Source of the DNA: Clostridia bacterium
GTDB lineage: Bacteria; Bacillota; Clostridia; Oscillospirales; Acutalibacteraceae
Direction: 5' to 3'
Assembly: GCA_017474045.1 (NCBI GenBank)
Contig: JAFUHX010000013.1
Location: forward strand, 1 to 44,547
Length of the DNA stretch: 44,547 nt
Shown: positions 14,965 through 44,547 of the stretch, one piece after another
How positions within the stretch are numbered: position 1 is the stretch's first letter
How the letters are laid out: each line of letters opens with the position of its first letter
Translations under genes and position numbers: made by a program
Notes under the pieces: model-generated
Told to the model about the DNA's origin: nothing
Databases searched by the model: none
Seen by the model: only the letters and a program-made list of their open reading frames with translations

Positions 14965-15003
14965 ACATATATGAAATTTAGATATGTAATTAGTGGTGAT
15001 AAT

Positions 15004-15390
15004 ATGAAGCTGTTAATTGAAGAAAAATTTTCTGAAATTTATACGCATTTTAGGGAATTTCAGGAGAATAAAGAATATGAACCATATTGGAATAAATGCA
15101 TGGAAGCTGTTTGTGACGCGCAGCTGCTGTCTCACATAGTGTTTTGCAACGATGTGTTTTGTATTCCGCCTGTTAAAACTTTTCTGACTTATTATAAAAA
15201 TGATTTTATTGAGCTAACAGGTAAAAGTAACGCAGAGATTCCTCTCTTTGTAAAGAAGAGCATTGGTGCTTTTTGGGGTATGGTATTTAAGTTTTGTCTT
15301 GGATACAATGGACAAAAGAGTGTTTCTGTTTCAATGAACGAGTATTTTAAGGTAAAAACTGCTACCTATTTTATGAAAAGTGAGGGGTAA
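15004..15390 (+). CDS. Uncharacterised protein, first gene of the cassette
   Basis: I do not recognise this 128-residue protein. It is predicted mostly helical, soluble and mildly Cys-rich (Cys in NKCMEAVCDAQ, FCNDVFC and FKFCLG). No signal peptide or membrane helix is present. The ATG at 14971 is in frame but coincides with the expected transcription start and has no ribosome binding site. The ATG at 15004 has a weak GGTGAT 3-8 bases upstream and is preferred. The stop lies 2 bases before the next start. Its position as promoter-proximal gene of a nuclease-containing operon suggests a partner, sensor or regulator of the nuclease, which is inference. Confidence 0.65.
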   Translation: MKLLIEEKFSEIYTHFREFQENKEYEPYWNKCMEAVCDAQLLSHIVFCNDVFCIPPVKTFLTYYKNDFIELTGKSNAEIPLFVKKSIGAFWGMVFKFCLGYNGQKSVSVSMNEYFKVKTATYFMKSEG

Positions 15391-15392
15391 AT

Positions 15393-16088
15393 ATGGGTTA
15401 CACAAGAAAGGAAATTCGAGATCTATGTGAAACCGCTTTTAAGAAAAAGAATACATTTTATAAAAAAGGTTTTGTCAACTATCGGGGAAGAACTTCTGAC
15501 ACAAAGGAGTATTACACAGAGGTTGTTGCTGAGTTTCTGTGTGAGAACATAAATGATTATGCAAATGGATTTGAAACCATTTCACGAAGAAGCTCTTATA
15601 AGGTGGAAGGACACGATGGAATATTTAATCCTCACTCTAACCGAGAGGAAGAAAAAATAGCCATGCTGATATTTAATCAAAGCAGGGAAAACGGAGCTTT
15701 TGATCTGATAGGTAAGATTGAGGATTATCAAACGCCTTTAAAATCAATTGAAGATGATGAAGTGGGGAAAATAGACCTTCTCTCTTTCGACGGTCAGGTT
15801 ATGCGTATTCTGGAATTAAAAAAGCCGGATAGTAAGGAAACAATGTTGCGGTGCGTTTTAGAGGGATTCACCTATATGAAAATCGCAGATTGTTGCAAAC
15901 TCATTTCTGATTTTGGGTATGATCCCCAAAATGTTGTAATAAAATCAAGTCCATTTGTTTTCTATGGCGGCGAGCAGCATAAGGAAATGTTGCAACAAAG
16001 ACCCCATTTGAAAAAGTTGATGGCTTTGTTGGATAGTAAACCATATTACATTATTGAGAACAAAAAATATATTGTTGTGGAGGGCTAA
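15393..16088 (+). CDS. PD-(D/E)XK nuclease-like protein
   Basis: This 231-residue soluble protein shows the core of the PD-(D/E)XK nuclease fold. A Glu-rich helix NREEEKIAMLIF lies at residues 83-94 (candidate motif I Glu). It is followed by KIDLLSFDG with D128 at the end of a strand, and by RILELKKPD with E141 and K143 forming the E-x-K motif. A helix LRCVLEGFTYMKI sits where the family's post-catalytic helix belongs. The N-terminal 75 residues are basic (RKEIRD, KKK, SRRSSYK) and may bind nucleic acid. AGGGGTAAAT precedes the ATG. The family includes restriction and defence nucleases and also repair enzymes. No methyltransferase is present, so a simple restriction system is unlikely. Confidence 0.65.
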   Translation: MGYTRKEIRDLCETAFKKKNTFYKKGFVNYRGRTSDTKEYYTEVVAEFLCENINDYANGFETISRRSSYKVEGHDGIFNPHSNREEEKIAMLIFNQSRENGAFDLIGKIEDYQTPLKSIEDDEVGKIDLLSFDGQVMRILELKKPDSKETMLRCVLEGFTYMKIADCCKLISDFGYDPQNVVIKSSPFVFYGGEQHKEMLQQRPHLKKLMALLDSKPYYIIENKKYIVVEG

Positions 16089-16091
16089 AGA

Positions 16092-16742
16092 ATGAGAGAT
16101 TATTTTAAGAAAATTGAAAAAGAAACTTTGTTTGCCGGTGTGTTCGGGTTGGTTGCTCTTGTTGCAATTGCCTTTGAAATGTTCTTTGCCGGTTTTGATT
16201 CTTCTTCTGTTGCAGGTGCAATTAAGGATATAGCAGGAACGGTATTAGATGTTGTTATGCTTGTGATTGCACTTAATGTATTCAGACCTAAGAAGAAGGC
16301 AATCGGTGGTTTTGAAGAAAGATTCAATGAAGAAATGGAAAAGATTATTTCAAAATATAATCCTTTGATACAAAAAGATATTTCAGTAAAAGGTCGATAT
16401 AATATAGCGGATGATATGGCTATTTTGTATCAGAACATTGATTGCAAATATCACAGATTGTTTGATTTTGACGGAAAGAGAGAGATTTCTTTTGTCGTTA
16501 GTAAAACCTTATTTATGGGAAAATCTAAAGATGATTTTTCTCAACAACAGAAAATTATTATTGATTCTGTTGCGGCCAAAGTAATCAATGAATATTCTGT
16601 TCTCAATGATAGGTATAAAGTAACACAGGATGGATTTAAGCTCACATTCAATCAGGAGTTAACAACTCCTGAAGACGCCGTAAAGGTAGCAGAAGTGATT
16701 GATAAAATTATTCTTCTTTACATAGTGGAATACAAAAAATAA
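16092..16742 (+). CDS. Two-helix membrane protein with cytosolic domain
   Basis: Residues 12-34 (LFAGVFGLVALVAIAFEMFF) and 46-65 (AGTVLDVVMLVIALNVF) form two membrane helices with a short outer loop. A cytosolic domain of about 150 residues follows the RPKKK stop-transfer cluster. That domain alternates helices and strands (MEKIISKYNPLIQ, MAILYQNIDCKYHRLFDF, EISFVVSKTLFMG) and has no motif I can name. It starts 3 bases after the nuclease stop, and its stop overlaps the next ATG by one base (TAATGG). As an anchored component it could be the sensor or effector membrane arm of the cassette, which is inference. Confidence 0.7.
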   Translation: MRDYFKKIEKETLFAGVFGLVALVAIAFEMFFAGFDSSSVAGAIKDIAGTVLDVVMLVIALNVFRPKKKAIGGFEERFNEEMEKIISKYNPLIQKDISVKGRYNIADDMAILYQNIDCKYHRLFDFDGKREISFVVSKTLFMGKSKDDFSQQQKIIIDSVAAKVINEYSVLNDRYKVTQDGFKLTFNQELTTPEDAVKVAEVIDKIILLYIVEYKK

Positions 16743-17923
16743 TGGAAATATATATTCACCGAGGACAGAATCAAATTGGTGGAAATATTGTTGAAATTTC
16801 TACTGATAGAACAAAAATACTGTTAGATGTTGGACTTGAGCTTGGAGATGATGAAGGTCAAGCCCTGCCGAAAATTCAGGGATTGTTTGACTTTGCCGGT
16901 TATGATGCAATTTTTATTTCGCACTATCACGGTGATCACCTCGGTCTCGCATACTACGCACATAAAGATATTCCTCTCTATATTGGGAAAGCCGGTTATA
17001 ATATAATTAAGGAGTCAGATATCTATAAAAAGAAAAAAACGATTACACCGAAAGATTTTCTGAAGCATAAGCAGACGATTGTTGTTGGAGATATTTCGGT
17101 TACTCCTTATCTTTGCGATCACTCAGCTTTTGATAGCTATATGCTGTTTTGCGAAGCGGATGGTGAAACAGTTCTATATACCGGAGATTTTCGTTCCAAT
17201 GGCAGAAAATCCTTTGACAAACTTCTGAAATCGTTACCTAAAAATGTGGATAAGTTATTGTGTGAAGGCACAACGCTGTCTCGTGGAAGCCATACCAATA
17301 TCACAGAGGAAGAATTGGAAAAGAAGGCGACAGAATTGTTTCGTAATTCAGTCGGTCCCATTTTTGTTCTTCAAGCTTCTATGAATATTGACCGAATTGT
17401 AACAATGTATCGCGCAGCAAAACGAAGTGGCAGGATTTTCTTAGAAGAAGTTTATATGGCGAATATTGCAACTGCAGCAGGAACAAGCATACCTAATCCG
17501 AATTTTGAAGATGTATATGCTTTTATTACCACTGCGTCAAAATTCAAAGAACTTTCAAAGTATAAACATCGTGCAGGCAAGTTGTTTATATCACGAAAAC
17601 CCTTTGTTATGTGTATAAGAAATTCCATGCTCCGATATCTTAAATCTCTTGCAAACAAGATGTCTTTTGAAGGAGGACTTCTTATCTATTCATTTTGGAG
17701 TGGATATCGCGAAACGGAAAGAATGAGAATTTTTCTGGCAGAGTGCGAAAAGTTAGGGTTGCAGGTTGTTACTTTGCATACCAGCGGACACGCAGATGAA
17801 AATACGATAAAGAAATTGATAGAAACTGTAAATCCAAAAGAGTTGATTCCGATTCACACGGAAAATGCTTATAGGTTTAGAGAAATTTTTCCCGATTTTT
17901 CATGGAAAAACAGTGAGGTTTAA
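16742..17923 (+). CDS. Metallo-beta-lactamase/beta-CASP protein, RNase J-like
   Basis: This 393-residue protein has the complete metallo-beta-lactamase set. HYHGDH (H61, H63, D65, H66) is motif 2; DHSAFDSYML (H127) is motif 3; YTGDFR (D149) is motif 4. The beta-CASP region follows with TSGHADE (H350) and IPIHTENA (H372), as in RNase J and CPSF-like nucleases. It opens HRGQNQIGGN, like RNase J, but is about 160 residues shorter because the RNase J C-terminal domain is missing. It is therefore probably a Zn-dependent RNA (or DNA) nuclease. It shares a one-base overlap with the membrane gene before it. A cellular RNase J would not be expected in such a cassette, so it is likely a dedicated effector or processing enzyme. 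Confidence 0.88.
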   Translation: MEIYIHRGQNQIGGNIVEISTDRTKILLDVGLELGDDEGQALPKIQGLFDFAGYDAIFISHYHGDHLGLAYYAHKDIPLYIGKAGYNIIKESDIYKKKKTITPKDFLKHKQTIVVGDISVTPYLCDHSAFDSYMLFCEADGETVLYTGDFRSNGRKSFDKLLKSLPKNVDKLLCEGTTLSRGSHTNITEEELEKKATELFRNSVGPIFVLQASMNIDRIVTMYRAAKRSGRIFLEEVYMANIATAAGTSIPNPNFEDVYAFITTASKFKELSKYKHRAGKLFISRKPFVMCIRNSMLRYLKSLANKMSFEGGLLIYSFWSGYRETERMRIFLAECEKLGLQVVTLHTSGHADENTIKKLIETVNPKELIPIHTENAYRFREIFPDFSWKNSEV

Positions 17924-17925
17924 AA

Positions 17926-18297
17926 ATGGGAAACATGTTGATTTTTGCTTTCTTGTTGATCGGGCTGACAGTCTCATTTAAAAAAGTTACGGAATGGTTT
18001 CAGTATAACAAGAATATCAATATAATTCCTGCTGCGCTTATTGAAATGATAGCGGTAATTGTTTTTATGTTTAACTATGGAAGTGAATACACCGATGATG
18101 TTGTTTTGATGTGGCTCTCTGTTGTGCTTATTCTGGCAATTACAGTATTCAACGTGGTTAAATATGGAATAAAAGACGGTGTTTTGGCAAGTCTTGCAGA
18201 ATTGGTTTTCAGCATATCTTCTGCAATCTTAGTTGCCTATATTCTCGTGACCGGCGGTAAGAAAGCACGCAAGAAATCAAGCTACAGAAGAAAGTAA
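17926..18297 (+). CDS. Small multi-pass membrane protein
   Basis: This 123-residue protein has about four hydrophobic helices: 4-18, 30-48, 59-76 and 84-106. It ends in a strongly basic tail (GGKKARKKSSYRRK), so N- and C-termini are probably cytoplasmic. No family recognised. It starts 2 bases after the RNase J-like gene and is the last gene of the cassette; no clear hairpin terminator follows before the right flanking repeat. It may pair with the membrane protein at 16092. Confidence 0.7.
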   Translation: MGNMLIFAFLLIGLTVSFKKVTEWFQYNKNINIIPAALIEMIAVIVFMFNYGSEYTDDVVLMWLSVVLILAITVFNVVKYGIKDGVLASLAELVFSISSAILVAYILVTGGKKARKKSSYRRK

Positions 18298-28708: not shown

Positions 28709-30154
28709 ATGGAAAAGAAAAACAGCAACAGAAAAGGAAAGGGCAACGGTTGCGCTTTATATAAAAAATGCGGCGGATGTCAGCTTCAGAACATGACCTA
28801 TGAAGAGCAGTTAAGCTATAAACAGGCAACCTGCATAAAAACTCTGGGAAGATTTGGCTTTGTGGAAGAGATTATAGGAATGAAAAATCCCTATCACTAC
28901 AGAAACAAGGTTCAAGCTGCCTTTGGGATGACCCGCGGCGGAAAAATAATTTCAGGGGTATATCAATCTTCAAGCCACAATATTGTTTTGGTTGATAGCT
29001 GCATGACTGAAGACGAAACCGCAGACAAGATTATTGTTGACATAAGAAAAATGCTGCCCTCGTTCAAGCTTTTTCCCTATAACGAAGACACGGGCAAGGG
29101 CTTTCTTCGCCATGTTCTTGTTAAAAGGGGCTTTTCAACCAATCAGGTTATGGTGGTTCTTGTAACCGGTTCTGCGCTTTTTCCGAAGAAGAATGAGTTT
29201 CTCAAAAAACTTCTTTCTCTTCACAGCGAAATCACAACAGTGGTCCAGAACATAAACGGCTCGAAAACCAGCCTTGTTTTAGGAGAAAGAGAAATTGTTC
29301 TTTACGGTGAGGGTTATATAGAAGATGTTCTTTGTTCAAAACGCTTCAGAATTTCTCCCAAGTCTTTTTATCAGATTAATCCCACGCAAACCGAGGTGCT
29401 TTATAAAACGGCGGTTGATTTTGCCGGACTAAGCGGAAAAGAAACAGTTCTTGATGCCTATTGCGGAATCGGAACAATCGGACTGGTTGCCGCTGAAAAT
29501 GCAGGTCAGGTAATCGGCGTTGAGCTTAACGCTGACGCTGTGGCTGACGCAAAAATCAACGCAAGGCTGAACAAAACAAAAAATATCCGCTTTTTCTGCG
29601 CTGATGCCGGAAAATTCATGGTGGAGGCGGCAAAGGAAAACGAAAAAATCGACGTTGTTTTTATGGACCCGCCGAGAGCCGGCAGTGACCTGAATTTTTT
29701 AAGAAGCCTTGTTACCCTCGGACCCGAAAAGGTGGTTTATATCTCCTGCAACATTGAAACTCAGGCAAGAGATTTGTTGTATCTTTGCAAAAACGGCTAT
29801 AAAGTCAAAAAAATTCAAGGCGTTGATATGTTTCCCCACACTAAGCATATAGAGACGGTTGTTCTTTTGTCCCAACGCAGACCGGACACACATATCGACA
29901 TAAAGTTTGACCTTTCAGAGCTTGATATTACTGCCGCCGAAACAAAGGCAACATATCAGGAAATCAAGGATTATGTGCTTGATAAACACGGTCTTAAAGT
30001 GTCAAGTCTTTACATATCACAGGTTAAGGCTAAGTGTGGTATCATTGAAAGAGAGTGTTATAACAAGGGTGAAGGCAAAAGCCGAGTGCCGCAGTGTCCG
30101 AAAGAAAAAGAAAATGCTATAATGGATGCGTTAAAACATTTCAGAATGATATAA
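28709..30154 (+). CDS. rlmD: 23S rRNA (uracil-C5)-methyltransferase with extra C-terminal domain
   Basis: Predicted to make 5-methyluridine in 23S rRNA (RumA/RlmCD family). The N-terminus lacks the TRAM domain and begins with the Fe-S cysteines CALYKKCGGCQLQ. The core has FYQINPTQTEVLY, the SAM motif DAYCGIGTIGL, DPPRAG, and the catalytic Cys in YISCN (C347). The methyltransferase would normally end near HTKHIETVVLL (about residue 390). About 90 more residues follow, with a DITAAETKATYQEI segment and KCGIIERECYN, and end KHFRMI. This tail looks like a small winged-helix-type domain supplied by an integrated element. Start: TTG 28697 is in frame, but ATG 28709 is preferred although no Shine-Dalgarno is present. 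Confidence 0.9.
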   Translation: MEKKNSNRKGKGNGCALYKKCGGCQLQNMTYEEQLSYKQATCIKTLGRFGFVEEIIGMKNPYHYRNKVQAAFGMTRGGKIISGVYQSSSHNIVLVDSCMTEDETADKIIVDIRKMLPSFKLFPYNEDTGKGFLRHVLVKRGFSTNQVMVVLVTGSALFPKKNEFLKKLLSLHSEITTVVQNINGSKTSLVLGEREIVLYGEGYIEDVLCSKRFRISPKSFYQINPTQTEVLYKTAVDFAGLSGKETVLDAYCGIGTIGLVAAENAGQVIGVELNADAVADAKINARLNKTKNIRFFCADAGKFMVEAAKENEKIDVVFMDPPRAGSDLNFLRSLVTLGPEKVVYISCNIETQARDLLYLCKNGYKVKKIQGVDMFPHTKHIETVVLLSQRRPDTHIDIKFDLSELDITAAETKATYQEIKDYVLDKHGLKVSSLYISQVKAKCGIIERECYNKGEGKSRVPQCPKEKENAIMDALKHFRMI

Positions 30155-30169
30155 TTTTATAAAATTTTC

Positions 30170-30208
30170 ACCCCTCTGTGTGGTTTTATCCCAACAGAGG
30201 GGTATTTT
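30170..30208 (+). terminator. Terminator after rlmD
   Basis: 10 bp stem ACCCCTCTGT (30170-30179)/ACAGAGGGGT (30194-30203), followed by ATTTTCATT. Confidence 0.85.
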
Positions 30209-30392
30209 CATTATGTACTAATATGATGATTTGAATATTTTTATTCTGGGTATTTTGTATATACGTTTTGCACAAATGCAATTGCCTAAAATTAGATGTT
30301 TTTACAAATTCGACTTATTCTTACTTTTTTTGTGTTACTTTTTTAGATATTTATAACTTATATTATACAGAACATAAAAAGGAGAAAAACTA

Positions 30393-32024
30393 ATGAATTA
30401 CAAGTATTTATCATCTATTCCCAAACCATTATTAAAAGATTTTATTAATAATAGAGTCATACCAATTATCGGAGCAGGTTTTTCCAAGAATGCAGATATA
30501 CCTCAACATCTTTATATGCCCGATTGGAAAGAATTAGGTAGAATTGCAGCTAGTGAAATCCCTGACTATACATATGATAACGACGCTGTGGATGCACTTT
30601 CATACTATGAAGTATTATATTCTCGTGTTAAACTTGTAGAAATGCTTATGAAAGAACTTCATTTTGGAAAAATACAACCTAACAATACTCATAAAGCCTT
30701 TTGTGAATTATTCACAGGTACAATTTGTACAACAAACTTTGATTCGTTAATTGAAGATACAATGACTCAATTACATCGTCCTGTTTCGGTTGTTGTAACC
30801 AAAGATAGATTAACAATTGGTTGTAATGATGAAAGTAAAATTGTAAAATTACATGGTGATTTTAATCATCCTGAAAGAATGGTTATTACAGAACATGATT
30901 TTGATGTTTACTTGGATAAAAACCCAATTTTTGCAACATATATTGCAAATCTCTTCATTACAAATACTATGTTATTGATAGGGTATAGTTTGGATGATAA
31001 TGATTTCAGATGTTTGTGGCAAATTATCAACAGTAGATTAGGCAATCTCTCGCAACCAGCTTATTGCTTAACCGTTGGCGCTTCTCCGGAATCTATAGCT
31101 AAATATAAACGGAGAAATATACGAGTTATAAATCTTGATGGTAATAAAGAAAATTACAAAACTATATTGTGTGACTTTTTCACTGAAATGAAAGATTATC
31201 TTGACAACGAAAAAGATAAGAGAATAAAAAGTACAGATGAAAGAATAAATGAACAAATGGTAATACCGGCAGAAGATAATAAGCTTTGCTTTTTGTCATG
31301 TGCTATGTCCCGCATTGCACAACTTTCAGATTTGATTTACCCTATATTAGGTGAATTGGGAATAACACCAATACGTATAGATGATATGTTGATGCCTGGA
31401 AATAATTGGGTTGATATTTCACGTGCAGCAATTAGAAAATCAAAAGCAGCGATAGTAGATTTATCTAAAGCTTCACCAAATGTAATGCTTGAATTCGAAA
31501 TAATCAAATCGATGAAACAAGCTGATAATGTATTGCTGTTATGTGAAAAAGGAAAGGATTTACCTGTTTCATTAACAAACCAAGATGTTGTTTTTTATAC
31601 ATACGATGTTTCAGATGAATTGGTTAATCAAGCCTTTATTACCAGGTTCAAAGAATGGTGCTGCGCAACATTTTGCTGTGATATTACAGATAATAAAATC
31701 AGTACAAAACAAAAGTATTTCATAGAGGCATATAGATTGTTTGATAAAGGTGAATACTCAGCCTGTATTGTTTCTGCGTATTCTGAATTGGAATATATAA
31801 TCAGATTAAATAGTAAGAATCTCAATGAAAAATATAAAAACACAAGTAGAAAAATGTTATCTCTCAGAGAATACTATTTTGAAGGTCATAAGAAAGCAGG
31901 AAACGAAGTTTATGGAATAATAGAACTTCGCAACAAAATTGTACATAACAGATATCAGGCCACAAAAAAAGAAGCGAGTGATTTTCTAAGATTTGTGGAG
32001 AAAGTGAAAGATGGTATAATTTGA
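30393..32024 (+). CDS. SIR2 - TIR-like - HEPN triple-domain defence protein
   Basis: 543 residues in three parts. Residues 1-275 form a SIR2-like domain (SIR2_2 type): IIGAGFSK (25-32), CTTNFDSL with N115, KLHGD with H154, and LLIGYSLDDNDFR. N and H match the catalytic pair of NAD-consuming SIR2 defence proteins. Residues 297-410 resemble a TIR-like/nucleoside deoxyribosyltransferase-like Rossmannoid: CFLSCAM, IVDLSKASPNVMLEFE with E367 as candidate catalytic Glu. Residues 435-543 are helical with RNKIVH (R513, H518), the HEPN-type R-x4-H motif. AAAAGGAG precedes the ATG. The GHKL-nuclease gene follows after 67 bases. Likely an abortive-infection effector acting through NAD depletion and/or RNA cleavage; this is inference from the domain families. 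Confidence 0.8.
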   Translation: MNYKYLSSIPKPLLKDFINNRVIPIIGAGFSKNADIPQHLYMPDWKELGRIAASEIPDYTYDNDAVDALSYYEVLYSRVKLVEMLMKELHFGKIQPNNTHKAFCELFTGTICTTNFDSLIEDTMTQLHRPVSVVVTKDRLTIGCNDESKIVKLHGDFNHPERMVITEHDFDVYLDKNPIFATYIANLFITNTMLLIGYSLDDNDFRCLWQIINSRLGNLSQPAYCLTVGASPESIAKYKRRNIRVINLDGNKENYKTILCDFFTEMKDYLDNEKDKRIKSTDERINEQMVIPAEDNKLCFLSCAMSRIAQLSDLIYPILGELGITPIRIDDMLMPGNNWVDISRAAIRKSKAAIVDLSKASPNVMLEFEIIKSMKQADNVLLLCEKGKDLPVSLTNQDVVFYTYDVSDELVNQAFITRFKEWCCATFCCDITDNKISTKQKYFIEAYRLFDKGEYSACIVSAYSELEYIIRLNSKNLNEKYKNTSRKMLSLREYYFEGHKKAGNEVYGIIELRNKIVHNRYQATKKEASDFLRFVEKVKDGII

Positions 32025-32091
32025 TTTTATTCAAAAGTAAATCATATAAATGATTAATTATCCAAAACTTTTTATTGGGAGGTTATAAATA

Positions 32092-34002
32092 GTGGATCAG
32101 AGCGCAATTTTATTTGAAGAAAATTATATATTTAGAAACTATAAATCAATAACTTCGAATAATGATGTAGCACTTACAGAGTTTGTAGCCAATGCTTGGG
32201 ATGCCGGGGCTCATAATGTTGTTATTACAATTCCAACAGAAGAACATGAGAAAATCATTATTGAAGATGATGGCATAGGAATGAGTGATGAAGAATTTCG
32301 AAATAGATGGATGACACTAAACTATGATCGTCAAAAAAGGCAAGGGAAAGAAGTAACCTTCCCATGTGATGTTGAAAAATCAAAAAGAATTGCGTATGGA
32401 AGAAATGGTGTAGGAAGACATGGTATGTTGTGTTTTTCGGACACCTATACGGTTGAAACATGGAAGGATGGAATATGTAATATATATAATATTTCTATTT
32501 CTAAAGGTGAAGCACCATTTAAAATTATCAGCCATCTTGCTATGGAAAAAATTGGACATGGAACCAAATTGTATACCTTTGTAACTAGGCATTTGCCCGA
32601 TGCAGATGCAATGACCGACATTTTGTCTGCTAGATTTTTATATGATCCAAATTTCTCGGTAAAAATAAATGATAAAAAGATTGATTTATCAGAACATAAG
32701 GGAGTCGTCTTTACAAAAGACTTTGTTACATCTGCAAATGCAAAACTAAGTATGATATGTATTGATTCCGAAAAAACAGCAGCAAAATCACAACAACATG
32801 GTATTGCTTTTTGGGTTTCAGGCAGATTGGTTGGGCAACCATCTTGGTCATACGGAAAAACAACTTTTCTTGATGGAAGATTTAGAGCAGCAAAAAGATA
32901 TACAATTATTATAAAAACTGATGATCTTATTGATGATGTATTGCCAGATTGGAGTGGATTTGTAGATTCTGGCAACATGAAAAGTCACTACGAAAGTATA
33001 AAACAGGAAGTAGATTCCTTTATTAAATCAGTGATGAAGGATCATATTAATGAAATTAGATATGATGTTATAAGAGAATCACGAGATGATTTAGAACCAC
33101 TAAATATTAAAGGAAAACGAACCATTGCAACTTTTATTGAGAAAATAACTGAATTAAATCCAATAATTACTCCAGATTATTTAAAAAGTTCAATTGATGC
33201 TTTGATTTCCATAGAAAAGGCGAGTAAAGGTGAAATGCTTTTGTCTCAACTGAGTCAAATGACTCCAGAGCAACTTGATAAATTAACAGACATACTGAAT
33301 ACATGGGATGTTGATGATATTGCAACTGTTATAGGGGAAATTGATAAAAGAGTAGTGGTTGTTGAAGCAATACAACGGTTATACAATGATAGAGCAACAG
33401 AAGAGTTGCACACGTTACATCCATTAGTACTCAATTCCAGATGGTTATTTGGACCACAGTATGATTCTCCAATGTTCGTTTCTAATTCAGCTTTAACAAC
33501 AGTTATCAACAGTTTGTTTAACAAAGAAGACATAGATATTGATTCTATAGATAATCCTAAACGCAGACCGGATATTGTTTGTTTGAAAGATTTTTCTCTA
33601 AAAGCTGTTTGTACGGATAGGATAGATTTGACAGCAGGAGAAATAATGAAGCCCGATCAAGTTTTGATAGTGGAAGTAAAACGAGGTGGATTTGAAATTA
33701 CAGACAAAGAGATCAATCAAATTGAATATTATGTAAGACAAATAAGAAAATCAGCAATTCTACATAGTTCGGCTACAATAGATGCATATATTGTTGGTGC
33801 AAAACTTGGAGATATTGATCAAGAGAAAGAAACAACAAGCGGTAGAATTCATGCGGTTACATATGGGCAATTAGTGGATACTGCAAATAGCAAATTGTTT
33901 AGATTGAGAGATACTTTACAAGAACACTATGACTTGATGGGTCAAGAAAGCATAGTAGAAAAAGCGTTAAAAGAATCCACTCAATTAAAAATGAAAATAT
34001 AA
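32092..34002 (+). CDS. GHKL (Hsp90-like) ATPase fused to PD-(D/E)XK nuclease domain
   Basis: The 636 residues begin with a GHKL ATPase like those of MORC/Hsp90/MutL: ALTEFVANAWDAGA (E30, N34), EDDGIGM (58-64) and GRNGVGRHGM (103-112). A transducer-like middle region follows. The C-terminal 150 residues carry a PD-(D/E)XK-type nuclease: RPDIVC (D494), then LIVEVKRGG (E528, K530) and a helix EINQIEYYVRQI, resembling Shedu-type and restriction nucleases. Start GTG at 32092 is supported by GGGAGG 12 bases upstream. It sits between the SIR2 protein and a 97-residue protein in one A/T-rich transcription unit. Sensing or cutting phage DNA is a reasonable inference. Confidence 0.82.
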   Translation: MDQSAILFEENYIFRNYKSITSNNDVALTEFVANAWDAGAHNVVITIPTEEHEKIIIEDDGIGMSDEEFRNRWMTLNYDRQKRQGKEVTFPCDVEKSKRIAYGRNGVGRHGMLCFSDTYTVETWKDGICNIYNISISKGEAPFKIISHLAMEKIGHGTKLYTFVTRHLPDADAMTDILSARFLYDPNFSVKINDKKIDLSEHKGVVFTKDFVTSANAKLSMICIDSEKTAAKSQQHGIAFWVSGRLVGQPSWSYGKTTFLDGRFRAAKRYTIIIKTDDLIDDVLPDWSGFVDSGNMKSHYESIKQEVDSFIKSVMKDHINEIRYDVIRESRDDLEPLNIKGKRTIATFIEKITELNPIITPDYLKSSIDALISIEKASKGEMLLSQLSQMTPEQLDKLTDILNTWDVDDIATVIGEIDKRVVVVEAIQRLYNDRATEELHTLHPLVLNSRWLFGPQYDSPMFVSNSALTTVINSLFNKEDIDIDSIDNPKRRPDIVCLKDFSLKAVCTDRIDLTAGEIMKPDQVLIVEVKRGGFEITDKEINQIEYYVRQIRKSAILHSSATIDAYIVGAKLGDIDQEKETTSGRIHAVTYGQLVDTANSKLFRLRDTLQEHYDLMGQESIVEKALKESTQLKMKI

Positions 34003-34026
34003 TTAAAAATAAGGAGATAAATTTAT

Positions 34027-34320
34027 ATGAGAATTAATCACAGTGATGCAATCGTTTTAGAAAGCATAGTAAGAAATGTTTTTAGCTGTAATCGCTCTGG
34101 TATGGGTGGTTACATAGATGCTGACCATTTTGAGTCGGAACCTTTTGATGCTGCACTCATTGCCCTTGCTCCATTATGGCAAAAAGGTGACTTTCATGAA
34201 ATCGAAGATTTTTTGTTTAAATGGGAACACTCTTTGCGAAAAAATAGTGATGAAAACGTAAGTATTGAGAATTTCATAAATGAACTTGATGGCATTGTAA
34301 CTGTTTTAATAAATAGATAA
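34027..34320 (+). CDS. Uncharacterised 97-residue protein in the SIR2 operon
   Basis: A small acidic helical protein (MRINHSDAIVLESIVRN..., then SRNxx-free GMGGYIDADHFE and a Trp-containing helix FLFKWEHSL). AAGGAG lies 9 bases before ATG and 24 bases after the GHKL gene, so it is co-transcribed with it. No family recognised. In position it could be a third system component or an immunity/regulatory partner. Confidence 0.6.
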   Translation: MRINHSDAIVLESIVRNVFSCNRSGMGGYIDADHFESEPFDAALIALAPLWQKGDFHEIEDFLFKWEHSLRKNSDENVSIENFINELDGIVTVLINR

Positions 34321-34351
34321 TACAGCATTTACAATCCACACATTCGACAAG

Positions 34352-34402
34352 GCCTCCTTTAATTTGTACAATGAAGCTACAAAATTAAAGGAGGCTTTTT
34401 TT
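34352..34402 (+). terminator. Terminator whose right arm contains the tnpV ribosome binding site
   Basis: GCCTCCTTTAATTTGTA (34352-34368) pairs with TACAAAATTAAAGGAGGC (34378-34395), then TTTTTTT and the tnpV ATG at 34403. The paired arm includes AAAGGAGG. Confidence 0.8.
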
Positions 34403-34768
34403 ATGTCAAACAAAAATTCTATCAGTTACCGTCAGGTTGGCGACTATTTAATCCCTAACCTCATTATCCCGCCCGAAGAAGCAAGTATCACCCTCGGCAA
34501 ATGGGGAATGATGCGCAAGAGCTATCTTGAAAAGCATAAGAAGGTGTTATTTACAACACTGCTTACCCAGGGTAAACTTTATCAGCACTGTGCCGAAATA
34601 GAAAATCAAGCACAAGATATGTTTGATGTTCTTATTGAGCAGATGAAAGAGGCTGAGGGCGTCACAGAGCAGCTGAAAGAGGAAAATCAGCTTGAGTGGG
34701 TGTGCCGTATGGGGAATATTGAGCAAAGAGCAAGAGAGGTTGTCTGTGCTGAGCTTATCTATAACTGA
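34403..34768 (+). CDS. tnpV: TnpV family transposon-encoded protein
   Basis: This 121-residue protein matches the TnpV family of Tn4451-type elements: ISYRQVGDYLIPNL opening, LGKWGMMRKSYLEKHK, then TLLTQGKLYQH and a C-terminal helix. Family function is unknown; it travels with large serine recombinase elements. An in-frame ATG at 34364 precedes the terminator hairpin, but AAAGGAGG at 34388-34394 places the start at 34403. It is followed by a terminator shared with the convergent zinc-ribbon gene. Confidence 0.9.
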   Translation: MSNKNSISYRQVGDYLIPNLIIPPEEASITLGKWGMMRKSYLEKHKKVLFTTLLTQGKLYQHCAEIENQAQDMFDVLIEQMKEAEGVTEQLKEENQLEWVCRMGNIEQRAREVVCAELIYN

Positions 34769-37260: not shown

Positions 37261-37290
37261 TTGACCGTTAACTTAAAGGTATGCTATAAT
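37261..37290 (+). promoter_or_regulatory. Promoter of the LytTR two-component operon
   Basis: TTGACC at 37261-37266, 18 bp, TATAAT at 37285-37290. Confidence 0.75.
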
Positions 37291-37314
37291 AATCTTACAA
37301 GGGGGTGCAAAGCT

Positions 37315-38013
37315 ATGAAAATTGCAATATGTGATGACGAAATAAAATATGTGGAAGAAACAAAAATAAAAGTTAAAAATATTCTTGCCGAGCAAAACAT
37401 AAATGCGGAAATTGATTTGTATAACAGCAGTACCGATATCTATAACTGCGGAAAGTTTTATGATATTGCTTTTTTAGATATCGAAATGGAGCCTTATTCG
37501 GGAATTAAGGTTGCAGAAAAGCTGAAAGCAACAAATCCTTATATTGTGATTTTTATAGTTACCTCTTACGATGAATACCTTGATGATGCTATGGATCTGA
37601 ATGTTTTCAGATATATAAAAAAGCCCCTTGATGAAAGGCGGCTGAAAGCAGGTGTGTGTAAAGCACTGGAAATGATAGACAACAATGTCATAACGTTTTT
37701 TCTCAAAAGCGGAAACAACTCGGTAAGTGTTATATCAGATGATATTATTTTTGTTGAAACTGTGGGAAGAACAACACGGGTTGTTACCGTTAAGGGCGAA
37801 TATGTTTCTGAAAACAAGATGACATTCTGGAAAGAAAAGCTGTCAGCTTCCTTCTTCTTTCCCGTACACAAGAGCTTCATCATCAATATGAAGCATTTAA
37901 CGGGATATAAAAGAGACACCGTAACCCTTTCAGAAACCTACAGTATTCCCGTAGCATACCGCAAGCAGGCAAAATTCAGAAGCTATTTCTTCAATTTTGT
38001 GGGAGGTCGCTGA
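37315..38013 (+). CDS. LytTR-type response regulator
   Basis: 232 residues. The receiver domain (1-120) has the acidic pocket CDDE (D7, D8), the phosphoacceptor D55 in FLDIEM, and the conserved Lys in IKKPLD. The LytTR DNA-binding domain (about 130-232) shows FVETVGRTTRVVT, HKSFIINMKHL and the end IPVAYRKQAKFR. It belongs to the AgrA/ComE-like group. The frame runs 54 bases further upstream, but GGGGGTG 8 bases before the ATG at 37315 and the MKIAICDDE family N-terminus set the start. It is followed by its histidine kinase after one base. The direct repeat at 37211 is its probable target. Confidence 0.94.
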   Translation: MKIAICDDEIKYVEETKIKVKNILAEQNINAEIDLYNSSTDIYNCGKFYDIAFLDIEMEPYSGIKVAEKLKATNPYIVIFIVTSYDEYLDDAMDLNVFRYIKKPLDERRLKAGVCKALEMIDNNVITFFLKSGNNSVSVISDDIIFVETVGRTTRVVTVKGEYVSENKMTFWKEKLSASFFFPVHKSFIINMKHLTGYKRDTVTLSETYSIPVAYRKQAKFRSYFFNFVGGR

Positions 38014-38014
38014 T

Positions 38015-39307
38015 ATGAATACGGTAATAACCGCATTTTTATATATCGTTGAGTTTTTTATTGCAATTAACTGCTTTGACGATATTATGAATGAAAAAAT
38101 CAGAAAAACATATACAGTTTTAATCGGTATAGTTCTTTATGCTTTTGCCTTCAGCGTTCACTTTATAAATGAACATCCGATACTGAACATGGCTATCTTT
38201 TTTTCTGTTAACTTCTTTTTTGCTTTTTTGTGTTTTGACTGCAAAGCACTAAAAGCAGCACTTCTGGCATTTTTTCTTACGGCAACTATGGTGAGCACCG
38301 AATTTATTTCAATGACAGCGCTTTCATACATTTACAACGGTGATATAAACACTTACAACCAAAATATTGCCACCTATACAACTGCTATACTTCTGAGCAA
38401 AACTCTGTATTTTTTAATAACAAAGCTGCTTGTTTATTTTGGCTTTGGTATAAGTGTAAGCAAAAAAATGAAAACACCACCCTTTCTTTTTCTGTTTCCG
38501 GTTTGTTCAATAGTGATTCTTGTTGCGTTTTGGACTATTTCTTCAAACTATGAGTTGACAGGAACGCTTGATATTGTAATAACTGTTTCCAGTGTTGCTA
38601 TTTTGCTTGCGATAATCCTCACTTATGCTTTTTACGGTAAAACTACAAGAGAGCTTGACGAATTATATAAAGCTCAGCAAGAAGCTGAAAGAATCAATAC
38701 AGATATTGCATATTATTCTATTCTTGATAAACAGAACGATAAGCTCAAAACCTTTATACACGATGAAAAAAATCACCTTACGGTTATAAAAAGCCTTGCC
38801 GATAACGAAGAGGTTAATGAATATATTGATAAGATTTACGGTGAAATCGCACACCATTCAATGTTCGGAAACACAAAAAACAAAATGCTTGACCTGATGA
38901 TAAACAAATATCAGTATATTTGTGAAGCGGAAAGGATTGAGTTTTATGTGTCAATAAAAACAGCCAACCTATTATTTATTGAAAGTCCCGATTTAATTTC
39001 TATGCTTGGAAATCTTCTTGATAATGCCGTTGAAGCGGTGAAAAATTCAGCTGAAAGAAAAATTGATTTATCGATAAACAGAGTGAACGGTTTTGATATT
39101 TTAACCTGCACCAATTCCTGTGACACCTCACCGCAGGCAACAGGCAAAATTTTAAAGACAACAAAAAATGATGACGGAGTTCACGGGTTGGGTGTAAGGA
39201 GCATTAAGAGCGTTGTTAAAAAATATAAGGGCGACTTTGATTGGTCATACAACGAAAGCGCAAAAGAGTTTGCGGTGTATATAGCTTTCAGCGAAAAGCT
39301 TAATTAA
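38015..39307 (+). CDS. GHKL sensor histidine kinase (AgrC/NatK-like)
   Basis: 430 residues with about six membrane helices (residues 5-210), then a cytosolic kinase. The phosphoacceptor region FIHDEKNHL contains H249, the N-box is NLLDNAVEA, and GVHGLGVRSI is the G-box; the ATPase is the HATPase_c_5 (GHKL) type used by peptide-sensing kinases. GGGAGG 9 bases before ATG 38015 decides the start over an in-frame ATG at 37997. The multi-pass sensor domain suggests a peptide or membrane signal, but no propeptide gene of the AgrD/AgrB type is present. It acts on the preceding regulator. Confidence 0.93.
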   Translation: MNTVITAFLYIVEFFIAINCFDDIMNEKIRKTYTVLIGIVLYAFAFSVHFINEHPILNMAIFFSVNFFFAFLCFDCKALKAALLAFFLTATMVSTEFISMTALSYIYNGDINTYNQNIATYTTAILLSKTLYFLITKLLVYFGFGISVSKKMKTPPFLFLFPVCSIVILVAFWTISSNYELTGTLDIVITVSSVAILLAIILTYAFYGKTTRELDELYKAQQEAERINTDIAYYSILDKQNDKLKTFIHDEKNHLTVIKSLADNEEVNEYIDKIYGEIAHHSMFGNTKNKMLDLMINKYQYICEAERIEFYVSIKTANLLFIESPDLISMLGNLLDNAVEAVKNSAERKIDLSINRVNGFDILTCTNSCDTSPQATGKILKTTKNDDGVHGLGVRSIKSVVKKYKGDFDWSYNESAKEFAVYIAFSEKLN

Positions 39308-40386: not shown

Positions 40387-41723
40387 AGAGCCGACTTAAA
40401 GAGGTAATTCAGTATGCTGAAAATCCTGACAAAACAATCGATAAAAAGTATCTCGATGAGGATTTATACCAAACTCTGCAATATGCCGAAAACGATAAGA
40501 AAACCGATGAGAAACTTTATGTATCTGCAATTAACTGTCCCGTGCAACGAGCATATGAGCACATGATGACAACTAAACTTCATTATGGAAAGTTTGGCGG
40601 TAATGTGGCGTATCATGGATTTCAGAGTTTCAAAGAAAATGAAGTAACACCCGAAGAATGTCACAGTATTGGCGTTGAAACAGCAAAACAAATGTGGGGC
40701 GCTGAATATGAGATTGTAGTTACAACACATCTTGATAAAAACCACCACCTGCACAATCACTTTGTTGTAAATTCTGTTTCTTTCAGAACAGGGAGAAAGT
40801 TTGAAAACCATATCTCTGACCATTACAAGCTCCGTGAAATTTCTGATGCTATCTGCAAGGAACGGGACAAATCCGTTCTTGAAAACGCACCGTTCTACGG
40901 TGGTGAAAAGAAAGCATATTGGATTCATAAACAAGGCAAGAAAACGCACAGGGATATGCTCAAAGAAGATATTGAGATTTGTCTTACCGTTGCCACAAGC
41001 TGGGATGAATTCAGAAGAGTTCTTGCAACTATGGGATATGAGGTTGATTACAGACGATTTACCATCAAAGCAAAGGATTGGGAAGGAGGCATCAGGGTTG
41101 CGAGCCTTGGCTATACAGTAGAAGGCATAGAGAAAAGATTTAACGAAACCTATTACAGCGGACATCACCTTGTTGATTGGAATAACTTCTTCTACGCAAG
41201 GCGCAGATACTTTCCTCTTGAATCAGTCCGAAAGAAATTGGAGTTCAGCATTGACCATGGTAAAAGACCTGAGGTTATTTATGTTGACACTTTGTTCTTA
41301 CTGATAATCTTGGTATTTCAGTTGTTAAAGGAAATAGCAGATGCAATGCTCCTGACACCTGAAATGAGACACGCAGCAAAGGACATTAAACAATATGTGG
41401 CTGATTATCATTTCCTTACCGACAACCAAATTCACACTACTGATGATTTAACAGCAACCATTGAAGAAACACAGTTAAAGATTGCCGAGCTTGAAGAAAA
41501 GCGAAGCAAGGCGGATAACAAAAAACGAAGAGCTACCAATTTCAAAGACAAGGAAAGGTATAAAGCTCTGCGTAAGGAGATTACAAAAGAAATCACGCCT
41601 TTGAGAAATAAACTCAAGCAGGCGGAAGAAATTCTTGATAAATCTCCACATTTATATGAGCTCTTACAAAAAGAGCATCAATTAGAAATTAACAAAATTC
41701 GTAAAATAGAAAGGAGCCGATAA
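40359..41723 (+). CDS. MobP-type relaxase with unusual ATT start
   Basis: Nicks oriT and pilots single-stranded DNA in mobilization. From the ATT at 40359 the protein reads (M)ATTGFWPVKSRLKEVIQYAE, the expected family N-terminus with Y19 in QYAENPDKT as candidate catalytic Tyr. The metal-binding motif is NHHLHNH (H129, H132, H134). A coiled coil fills residues 330-454. AGGAGG (40343-40348) lies 10 bases before ATT. No ATG, GTG or TTG exists in frame between the upstream stop and GTG 40542, which would remove the catalytic Tyr. Either ATT is used (rare but known, as in infC) or the gene is silenced by a start-codon mutation. It shares an overlap with mobC and is followed by the ParB-like gene after one base. 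Confidence 0.82.
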   Translation: MATTGFWPVKSRLKEVIQYAENPDKTIDKKYLDEDLYQTLQYAENDKKTDEKLYVSAINCPVQRAYEHMMTTKLHYGKFGGNVAYHGFQSFKENEVTPEECHSIGVETAKQMWGAEYEIVVTTHLDKNHHLHNHFVVNSVSFRTGRKFENHISDHYKLREISDAICKERDKSVLENAPFYGGEKKAYWIHKQGKKTHRDMLKEDIEICLTVATSWDEFRRVLATMGYEVDYRRFTIKAKDWEGGIRVASLGYTVEGIEKRFNETYYSGHHLVDWNNFFYARRRYFPLESVRKKLEFSIDHGKRPEVIYVDTLFLLIILVFQLLKEIADAMLLTPEMRHAAKDIKQYVADYHFLTDNQIHTTDDLTATIEETQLKIAELEEKRSKADNKKRRATNFKDKERYKALRKEITKEITPLRNKLKQAEEILDKSPHLYELLQKEHQLEINKIRKIERSR

Positions 41724-43006: not shown

Positions 43007-44547
43007 ATGAAACGATTAAATTGCTATATCTATACCCGTGTTTCAACATCAATGCAGGTTGAGGGCTTCAGCCTTGATGCACAAAGAGAAAGGCTCCGTA
43101 AATATGCCGAGTATCAGGAAATGCATATTGCAGGTGAGTACAGTGATGAAGGTAAATCAGGTAAAAACATTGGCGGAAGACTTGAGTTTCAGAGAATGTT
43201 ATCAGATATTGCAAGCGGTAAAGATAATATAGACTATGTGCTTGTTTTTAAACTGTCCCGCTTCGGAAGAAATGCCGCTGATGTTCTTTCATCTTTACAG
43301 ATTATGCAAGACTACGGTGCAAATCTTATCTGCGTTGAGGATGGTATAGACAGTTCAAAAGATAGCGGTAAACTGATGATTTCCGTTTTATCTGCCGTTG
43401 CTGAAATTGAGCGTGAAAATATTCTTGTTCAGACAATGGAAGGCAGAAAACAAAAAGCAAGAGAAGGCAAATGGAACGGTGGCTTTGCACCTTACGGATA
43501 TTATCTTGAAAAAGGTGAACTGAAAATTGCTGAAGATGAGGCAGAAACAATCAGATTTATTTTTGACAAGTACATTAACACCAACATGGGTGCTAACGGT
43601 ATTGCAAAATATCTCAATCAACACGGCATAGCTAAAAAGCCAAGGCAGAACGGAACATTAGATACCTTTTCTGCACACTTCATAAAGTTGGTTATACAGA
43701 ACCCTGTGTACTGCGGAAAGATAGCTTTTGGCAGACGAAAAACAGAAAAGATTAACGGCACCCGAAATGAATATCATATAGTCAAACAGGATACCTATCC
43801 TGTTTATGACGGCATTCATGAGGCTATTGTATCTGTTGAAGATTGGGAGTTAGCTCAACAGAAGCGTAAAAAGTTAGGTGTTAAACGGGAGAAGATATAT
43901 AATCTCGATCACGAACATTTATTATCAGGATTGCTCCGCTGTCCTGTTTGCGGTGCGGCAATGTACGGTAACATTAACCGTAAGAAAAAGCCTGACGGTA
44001 CAATCTACAAAGACCACTTTTATTATGCCTGTAAGCACCGAATGAAGGTTGATGGACACAAGTGTGATTATCACAGACAATGGAATCAGACTGTTGTAAA
44101 CGGTGCTGTTGAAGAGGTAATTGAAAGGCTTGTATCTAACCCCGAATTTGAAAAGGCTTTGTGCGAAAAGATAAACACAAGAGTAAGTACAGAAGGTCTT
44201 GAAGAGGAACTTGCAGTATTCAAAAAGCAACTCAATCAGCTTGTAATGTCAAAAAGAAAACTTGCATCTCAAATGGATACCCTTGATGTAACTGACAGGC
44301 ATTATGATAAAAAGTATCAGGATATGCAAAACAGACTTTATGATTTCTATGATGAGATAGAGGTTGTAGAGGAACAAATAACGGAATTACAGTCCCGTAT
44401 AGCAAATATAAAAGAAGAAAAAATATCAGGTGAAAATGTCTATCTTTTTCTGCATTATTATGGTACAATGTACAAAGAGTTTACTGATGCTGAGAAAAAG
44501 AAGTTTCTCAATACCTTCATTGAGAGTGTTGAGATATTCAAAGAAGA
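43007..44547 (+). CDS. Large serine recombinase (partial, runs off window)
   Basis: 513 codons are visible; the stop lies beyond the window. The resolvase domain begins RLNCYIYTRVSTSMQVEG with nucleophile S13 and contains LSRFGRNAADV and AVAEIERENI. The recombinase domain (about 165-280, GFAPYGYYL onward) follows, then a zinc-ribbon (CPVCGAAM ... YACKHRM ... C) and a long coiled coil from about residue 395. This matches TnpX/TndX-type integrases that excise and insert Clostridia mobile elements. AAGGAG lies 10 bases before ATG. It probably drives integration at the rlmD end of this element. The N-terminal catalytic motifs are intact. Confidence 0.93.
   Translation, partial: MKRLNCYIYTRVSTSMQVEGFSLDAQRERLRKYAEYQEMHIAGEYSDEGKSGKNIGGRLEFQRMLSDIASGKDNIDYVLVFKLSRFGRNAADVLSSLQIMQDYGANLICVEDGIDSSKDSGKLMISVLSAVAEIERENILVQTMEGRKQKAREGKWNGGFAPYGYYLEKGELKIAEDEAETIRFIFDKYINTNMGANGIAKYLNQHGIAKKPRQNGTLDTFSAHFIKLVIQNPVYCGKIAFGRRKTEKINGTRNEYHIVKQDTYPVYDGIHEAIVSVEDWELAQQKRKKLGVKREKIYNLDHEHLLSGLLRCPVCGAAMYGNINRKKKPDGTIYKDHFYYACKHRMKVDGHKCDYHRQWNQTVVNGAVEEVIERLVSNPEFEKALCEKINTRVSTEGLEEELAVFKKQLNQLVMSKRKLASQMDTLDVTDRHYDKKYQDMQNRLYDFYDEIEVVEEQITELQSRIANIKEEKISGENVYLFLHYYGTMYKEFTDAEKKKFLNTFIESVEIFKE

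What the first reader, a model, noticed from the sequence alone, without database searches (positions are those of the whole stretch)
30393..34320. Candidate two/three-gene defence operon: SIR2-TIR-HEPN + GHKL ATPase-nuclease + 97-residue protein
The GHKL ATPase carries a C-terminal PD-(D/E)XK nuclease (D494, E528, K530), and its partner is an NADase/HEPN-type protein, all on a mobile element in a markedly A/T-rich block. A sensor (ATPase/nuclease) plus toxic effector arrangement would fit an abortive-infection system not matching the named ones I know.
Basis: inference. Interest (0 to 1): 0.82.

Follow-up and report, generated by a model that had tools for sequence, protein, structure and literature searches.

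The report
Stacked phage-defence genes on mobile element
A bacterium, probably from an animal gut, carries two probable anti-phage genes side by side in a mobile-element slot that holds a known anti-phage system in a related species; each gene belongs to a known kind and they probably work separately, not as one new system.

Summary
Three tandem ORFs lie at the stated coordinates in the most A/T-rich block of the window. The 543-aa protein has a SIR2 NADase-type domain with its key residues, a weak TIR-like part and a weak HEPN-like C-terminus. The 636-aa protein is a GHKL ATPase with a C-terminal PD-(D/E)XK nuclease pattern (D494, E528, K530), organised like the paraMORC3 family of 2008 and like VcSduA, shown in 2025 to act alone against phages. 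No SIR2 domain was found in any of 104 fetched stretches around GHKL relatives (103 distinct at most), including six with a 73-79% identical GHKL protein; three SIR2 relatives have no GHKL neighbour in the stretch held; the 97-aa protein's only relative found stands elsewhere. The block lies between a fused rlmD 3' extension and TnpV; CTn5 makes such a fusion when it inserts in rumA. In a same-genus genome that slot holds Gabija, and in another Gabija follows a second rlmD paralogue. Best reading: two independent defence genes stacked as exchangeable cargo, a restriction-like nuclease and an NAD-depleting abortive-infection protein. The SIR2-TIR-HEPN architecture is the rarer part.

The parts
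29879..30154 (+). C-terminal extension of RlmD (RumA), taken to be supplied by the inserted element: left end of the mobile unit
   Evidence: absent from 6 of 13 same-genus rlmD loci, which end near residue 394; the same extension sits on a second rlmD paralogue; CTn5 inserted in rumA makes the same kind of fusion
30175..30204 (+). terminator-like stem-loop after rlmD
   Evidence: pattern scan lists 30187-30204; the longer stem is read by eye; weak
30393..32024 (+). SIR2 (about 1-280) / TIR-like (about 295-400) / HEPN-like (about 430-543) protein
32092..34002 (+). GHKL ATPase with C-terminal PD-(D/E)XK nuclease pattern, paraMORC3-like organisation
34027..34320 (+). 97-aa protein of unknown family
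   Evidence: one distant relative, 34% identity, E=8.6e-7, standing alone
34330..34402 (+). conserved TnpV leader, right edge of the cargo slot
   Evidence: near-identical leader in L204 and L205; follows rlmD directly in L215
34403..34768 (+). TnpV, transposon-encoded protein
   Evidence: Pfam PF14198 E=1.1e-43
40542..41723 (+). MobA/VirD2-type relaxase
   Evidence: PF03432 E=1.1e-29
43007..44547 (+). large serine recombinase reaching the contig end
   Evidence: PF07508 74.3 bits at 43532-43873; ORF

Best explanation
The block is the defence cargo of a Tn1549/CTn5-like integrative element inserted at the 3' end of rlmD, carrying two defence genes that most likely act independently. (1) The 636-aa protein is a paraMORC3-like restriction-type nuclease: the GHKL ATPase dimerises on ATP, the middle region clamps DNA, and this licenses the C-terminal nuclease to cut phage DNA. 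(2) The 543-aa protein is a single-gene abortive-infection effector: its TIR-like and/or HEPN-like parts sense infection or drive oligomerisation and release the SIR2 NADase to deplete NAD+; the HEPN-like part may also cut RNA. Shown by sequence: domains, conserved residues, the cargo slot, and no linkage in the loci examined. Inferred: every biochemical step and the phage target.
For: No SIR2 domain by tblastn or profile (2862 ORFs) in 92 contig-scan stretches; the profile found 11 of 11 control loci, all of them first found by SIR2 searches and one (L006) in the model. None in 12 plasmid, phage and same-class stretches either. Six of the 92 carry a GHKL protein 73-79% identical (two of them, L065 and L066, have only 1.4-1.6 kb upstream). 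L006, L007 and L177, the SIR2 relatives with extended matches, show no GHKL gene. In the loci inspected the GHKL gene is a lone gene or stands with Dcm-DUF4928-Vsr, the pattern published for paraMORC3; a protein of the same organisation, VcSduA, protects alone. Defence role: the rlmD-TnpV slot of a same-genus genome holds GajA (778 bits) and GajB (639 bits), and a GajA (780 bits), an unscanned 578-aa partner and TnpV follow a second rlmD paralogue in another. NADase competence: G27-A-G-x-S31, N115 and H154 are invariant in 10 SIR2 proteins.
Against: The genes are 67 bp apart on one strand, share low GC, and no coding-strand terminator-like site lies between them, so co-transcription is likely. 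Only 80 of 313 genome relatives were returned; 24 of 92 stretches have under 1.7 kb on at least one side; L177 is a 6.3-kb contig with the SIR2 gene near its end. The one protein here whose record names it ParaMORC3 (phage PhiR44_1) aligns with the family only over the GHKL part, so the family name rests on organisation and. The TIR-like Glu (E367) is not kept in the Agrobacterium relative, and TIR and HEPN matches are sub-threshold. No structure model was available.
Confidence: 0.62

Rival explanations
1. The two large genes form one layered system: the GHKL nuclease recognises or cuts phage DNA, and its failure or its products trigger the SIR2 NADase as a suicide back-up.
For: Tight same-strand spacing and shared composition; both lie together in the slot that elsewhere holds one two-gene system, Gabija.
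Against: No SIR2 domain in any of 104 stretches around GHKL relatives, and no GHKL gene in 3 stretches around SIR2 relatives.
Confidence: 0.17
2. GHKL plus the 97-aa protein (or SIR2 plus it) is a two-part system in which the small protein is an inhibitor or adaptor.
For: 24-bp spacing and its own ribosome-binding site.
Against: The 97-aa protein is in 0 of 92 GHKL stretches; its one relative outside the window, in 147 other genomes searched, stands beside genes that look like housekeeping ones; none in plasmids or viral contigs.
Confidence: 0.1
3. The GHKL protein is the nuclease of a restriction-modification system (BbrUII/HgiDII-like) whose methyltransferase is missing or lies elsewhere.
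For: Best NCBIfam match is BbrUII/HgiDII, 102 bits; relatives L067 and L068 sit with Dcm, DUF4928 and Vsr.
Against: Score far under the 550-bit cut-off; no methyltransferase in the block; a relative of the L067 Dcm in only 5 of 92 stretches.
Confidence: 0.08
4. The block is decaying cargo without present function.
For: None found beyond low GC.
Against: Both large ORFs are uninterrupted with key residues kept.
Confidence: 0.03

Closest known systems
paraMORC3 (Iyer 2008, PMC2292703) and GHKL-Shedu VcSduA (PMC12137116)
   Same: N-terminal GHKL ATPase with motifs kept, C-terminal PD-(D/E)XK pattern, often a lone gene; end-to-end profile alignment (99.9%) with a GHKL protein that itself has a sub-threshold SduA_C match
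   Different: no SduA_C/DUF4263 match in 27 of 27 family members at E<=0.1; comparison with a classic Shedu protein is insignificant; a phage protein named ParaMORC3 aligns over the GHKL part only; VcSduA itself was not compared
Thoeris ThsA
   Same: SIR2 domain, best PADLOC match 102 bits over 15-270; solved ThsA chains match the same part
   Different: followed by TIR-like and HEPN-like parts; the match ends near residue 270; no ThsB among the adjacent genes
DSR2 / DSR1
   Same: N-terminal SIR2 (83.9 and 23.9 bits)
   Different: 543 aa against profiles of 1215 and 1263 positions; cut-off 1400 bits
SIR2-TIR-HEPN relatives in Agrobacterium fabrum pAt1 and Bradyrhizobium pCW1_1
   Same: about 31% identity over 97-99% of the protein; SIR2 residues and LRNKxVH kept in the Agrobacterium protein
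   Different: no GHKL neighbour; the Bradyrhizobium gene is annotated in pieces
CTn5 inserted in rumA of Clostridioides difficile 630-delta-erm (PMC4320837, passages)
   Same: insertion fuses rumA to an element-borne gene end
   Different: cargo and host differ; the right junction is not in the contig
Gabija at the same slot in same-genus genomes
   Same: position between the rlmD extension and TnpV
   Different: unrelated proteins

Membership tests
paraMORC3 / GHKL-Shedu | N-terminal GHKL ATPase with its motifs | tested here: met
   HATPase_c_3 E=3.5e-21; E30, N34, D59xGxG, GRNGxGR and GHGT present and conserved; motif assignment recalled
paraMORC3 / GHKL-Shedu | C-terminal restriction-fold nuclease with D...ExK | tested here: met
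   D494 and K530 invariant, E528 at least 90% in 30 and 27 rows; fold itself not modelled
paraMORC3 / GHKL-Shedu | S5-fold domain between them | tested here: inconclusive
   profile alignment runs through the region; no structure model
paraMORC3 / GHKL-Shedu | whole-length similarity to a protein named paraMORC3 | tested here: not met
   PhiR44_1 ParaMORC3 aligns over the GHKL part only, 98.8%
paraMORC3 / GHKL-Shedu | SduA_C (DUF4263) signature, needed for the Shedu name | tested here: not met
   no SduA_C match in 27 members; one PADLOC SduA match, E=2e-4, in 1 of 27
BbrUII/HgiDII restriction enzyme | NCBIfam score over 550 bits | tested here: not met
   102 bits
BbrUII/HgiDII restriction enzyme | cognate methyltransferase beside it | tested here: not met
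   none among the ORFs of the block
Thoeris | SIR2 followed by a SLOG/STALD domain | tested here: inconclusive
   ThsA models match SIR2 only; the middle domain's fold was not modelled
Thoeris | adjacent ThsB TIR gene | tested here: not met
   adjacent ORFs are rlmD, GHKL, the 97-aa gene and TnpV
DSR1/DSR2 | full-length match over 1400 bits | tested here: not met
   23.9 and 83.9 bits
SIR2 NADase effectors | SIR2 domain with catalytic Asn and His | tested here: met
   N115 and H154 invariant in 10 proteins; their catalytic role is recalled from ThsA
SIR2 NADase effectors | NAD+ hydrolysis on infection | not testable with these tools
   needs an experiment
rumA-inserted Tn1549/CTn5-like element | insertion fuses the rumA 3' end to an element-borne extension | tested here: met
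rumA-inserted Tn1549/CTn5-like element | relaxase and recombinase on the same element | tested here: inconclusive
   both lie to the right in the window, but the contig ends before a right junction

The most novel reading that the evidence does not exclude
SIR2-TIR-HEPN and the GHKL nuclease work as one layered system: the nuclease attacks phage DNA and, when it is blocked or overwhelmed, the SIR2 protein ends the infection by NAD+ depletion, with TIR-like and HEPN-like parts as sensor or second effector. This would be a recent, locus-specific pairing, which the neighbourhood counts cannot exclude.
Probability: 0.15. Interest if true: 0.7.

Novelty: new variant of a known kind. Interest (0 to 1): 0.38.

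Why it matters
It shows how adjacency in one genome can look like a new defence operon when it is probably cargo stacking. It points to an exchangeable slot (rlmD extension to TnpV), apparently on rumA-inserted elements, where defence modules are swapped; reading that slot across genomes would list candidates with a built-in positive control, Gabija. The SIR2-TIR-HEPN protein is a rare architecture that no model used here covers, and the GHKL branch (313 relatives in one scan, several phyla among the 80 shown) looks like a large sister of GHKL-Shedu without the Shedu signature.

Tried and rejected
Rejected: a conserved SIR2-GHKL operon; Thoeris, DSR, BbrUII/HgiDII and Shedu membership by score, signature or neighbours; a 97-aa toxin/antitoxin partner.

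Led nowhere: viral-contig scans with the single GHKL protein, the SIR2 pair and the 97-aa protein found no relatives. PDB sequence searches with the TIR-like and HEPN-like parts gave nothing significant. Searches of whole genomes with the SIR2 protein or profile gave matches to the SIR2 part, apart from one extended relative and a few matches to the TIR-like part. Literature, open-access library only: the phrases SIR2-HEPN, SIR2-TIR, sirtuin-HEPN and SIR2-TIR-HEPN gave 0 papers, which says little about other wording; searches for TnpV with phage defence and for rumA with Gabija listed nothing on point among the 10 rows shown each. Papers: PMC2292703, parts 1 and 2 of 4; PMC12137116, PMC3710099, PMC13174449 and PMC4320837, passages; all others, search listings only.

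Incomplete: PADLOC was run on 10 chosen neighbour proteins of the rlmD/TnpV loci: 6 had a hit (three of Gabija, Drt2, SpbK, and a weak 27-bit mad8 match for the L205 ATPase), 4 had none (L205 195 aa, two of L218, one of L232). Of 15 TnpV loci fetched, neighbours were scanned in 5. Further copies of the rlmD extension in G003 were not looked at.
Full report
OBSERVATION. The block 30156-34330 has GC 0.315 against 0.395 for the window, and 0 of 641 overlapping same-length windows outside it are as low. A terminator-like stem follows rlmD; no coding-strand terminator-like site lies between the three genes (5 sites found in the region, 1.7 expected from shuffles; 19 promoter-like sites, 24.2 expected, so promoters cannot be called).

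THE SIR2 PROTEIN. Residues 110-244 match SIR2_2 (E=4.8e-24); TIR_2 and HEPN matches are below Pfam's cut-offs, also when each part is searched alone (TIR_2 E=4e-4, HEPN E=0.02). G27-A-G-x-S31, T114-N115 and H154 are invariant in an alignment of 10 SIR2 proteins (the role of Asn and His is recalled from ThsA). The C-terminal LRNKIVH (R513-x4-H518; that this is the HEPN motif is recalled) is kept in the Agrobacterium relative, while the TIR-like Glu E367 is not. hhalign links the middle part weakly (71% probability) to a TIR-like part of another protein. Relatives over the whole length are rare: of 153 plasmid records with a match, 2 cover at least 80% of the protein; one same-phylum relative is a 422-aa form without the C-terminus; 391 same-class, 98 kin and 394 same-order genomes gave no other whole-length match.

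THE GHKL PROTEIN. HATPase_c_3 at 25-140; the nuclease is seen as a conserved RPD (D494) ... VEVK (E528, K530) ... Q543 pattern, D494, K530 and Q543 invariant in 30 homologues. One genome-contig scan found 313 relatives and returned 80, 37-79% identical, in several phyla by record title. Profile comparison runs nearly end to end, nuclease motif included, with a GHKL protein that itself shows a sub-threshold SduA_C match. Results against a simple family name: against a classic Shedu protein the comparison is insignificant, a phage protein whose record names it ParaMORC3 aligns over the GHKL part only, and none of 27 members shows SduA_C in Pfam at E<=0.1. Iyer and co-workers described paraMORC3 as GHKL plus S5 plus a RecB-like nuclease, partly lone genes and partly in restriction-modification neighbourhoods (PMC2292703, parts 1-2 of 4). 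VcSduA is a GHKL-PD-(D/E)XK protein; proteins of its organisation were formerly annotated paraMORC3; changes in its ATPase or its nuclease residue abolish protection, and growth data were consistent with restriction that spares the cell (PMC12137116, passages).

ARE THEY ONE SYSTEM? tblastn with the SIR2 and 97-aa proteins gave no hit (E<=0.01) in the 92 stretches of the contig scans, 80 genomic and 12 viral (7 of the 12 viral ones match only the N-terminal part of GHKL). A SIR2 profile gave no hit in 2862 ORFs of those stretches and found 11 of 11 control loci, all first found by SIR2 searches and one in the model. 82 of 92 stretches have at least 1.7 kb upstream and 68 of 92 on both sides (GHKL end taken as 7900 for most). 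12 further stretches (9 plasmid or phage, 3 same-class; four of them distant or partial relatives) also gave none. Six of the 80 carry GHKL proteins 73-79% identical to the window's. In the other direction, none of 3 stretches with an extended SIR2 match carries a GHKL gene (one is a 6.3-kb contig). In two loci the GHKL gene stands with Dcm, DUF4928 and Vsr; relatives of that Dcm occur in 5 of 92 and of one SF2 helicase in 7 of 92. I conclude that the GHKL gene is a self-sufficient module and the pairing is local.

WHERE THE BLOCK SITS. Of 13 rlmD loci fetched from genus members, six end near residue 394 (L209-L214), five carry the whole extension of about 90 residues (L204-L207, L215), one carries part of it at a contig end (L208) and one a short remnant (L217). 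The same extension, 85-91% identical in DNA, lies on a second rlmD paralogue (51-52% protein identity to the window's RlmD) in two genomes, one of them the window's own. CTn5 does this in Clostridioides difficile: insertion fuses rumA to CD1844A (PMC4320837, passages). Between the extension and TnpV, L204 holds GajA (778 bits) and GajB (639 bits); L221 holds a GajA (780 bits) and a 578-aa partner with the same beginning, which was not scanned, behind the rlmD paralogue; L205 an ATPase and a 195-aa protein on the other strand, with a truncated TnpV; L215 nothing; L207 has the extension but no TnpV in the stretch held. Two other TnpV copies stand beside Drt2 (492 bits) and SpbK (249 bits); many others stand beside genes that look ordinary by eye, so TnpV is not a defence marker by itself. 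A relaxase, a ParB-like gene and a serine recombinase lie to the right in the window, but the contig ends at 44547, so the right junction cannot be seen and it is an inference that they belong to the same element.

MECHANISM, INFERRED. GHKL: ATP-dependent clamp and nuclease that restricts phage DNA. SIR2: infection-triggered NAD+ depletion, regulated through the TIR-like and HEPN-like parts.

VERDICT. Real and probably defensive; two known kinds side by side; no evidence for a new joint system. New at the level of architecture (SIR2-TIR-HEPN) and of a large GHKL branch without the Shedu signature.

Noticed in passing
window 29879-34768; L204, L221, L205, L215: An exchangeable slot between a fused rlmD extension and TnpV holds SIR2/GHKL here, Gabija in two same-genus genomes (once behind a different rlmD paralogue), an ATPase plus a 195-aa protein in a third and nothing in a fourth.
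   Followed up: partly
L220:1038-3034, L224:916-2847: TnpV copies directly beside Drt2 (492 bits) and SpbK (249 bits) in other genus members; many other copies stand beside genes that look ordinary by eye.
   Followed up: partly
L067:890-5317, L068:2804-7899: Dcm - DUF4928 - Vsr - GHKL gene clusters, in L068 with TnpV upstream and a relaxase-like gene downstream.
   Followed up: partly
window 37261-39307: A LytTR-type response regulator followed by an AgrC-like sensor kinase (named by eye); a relative of the kinase lies near a TnpV copy in L230.
   Followed up: no
window 14971-18297: A second A/T-rich block (GC 0.34-0.37, strong GC skew) with small unknown ORFs and a 393-aa ORF that looks like a metallo-beta-lactamase-fold protein by eye; may be another island.
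   Followed up: no
L178:249-2953 and 11521-14225: Apparently identical copies of a stretch of about 2.7 kb, 11.3 kb apart, each with a 172-aa TIR-like protein bearing NPNVMYELG.
   Followed up: no
L064:4684-6693: A GHKL relative 79% identical to the window's is split into two ORFs; left as it is.
   Followed up: no
L255:7352-7666: The only relative found of the 97-aa protein (34%) stands alone beside genes that look like housekeeping ones.
   Followed up: yes
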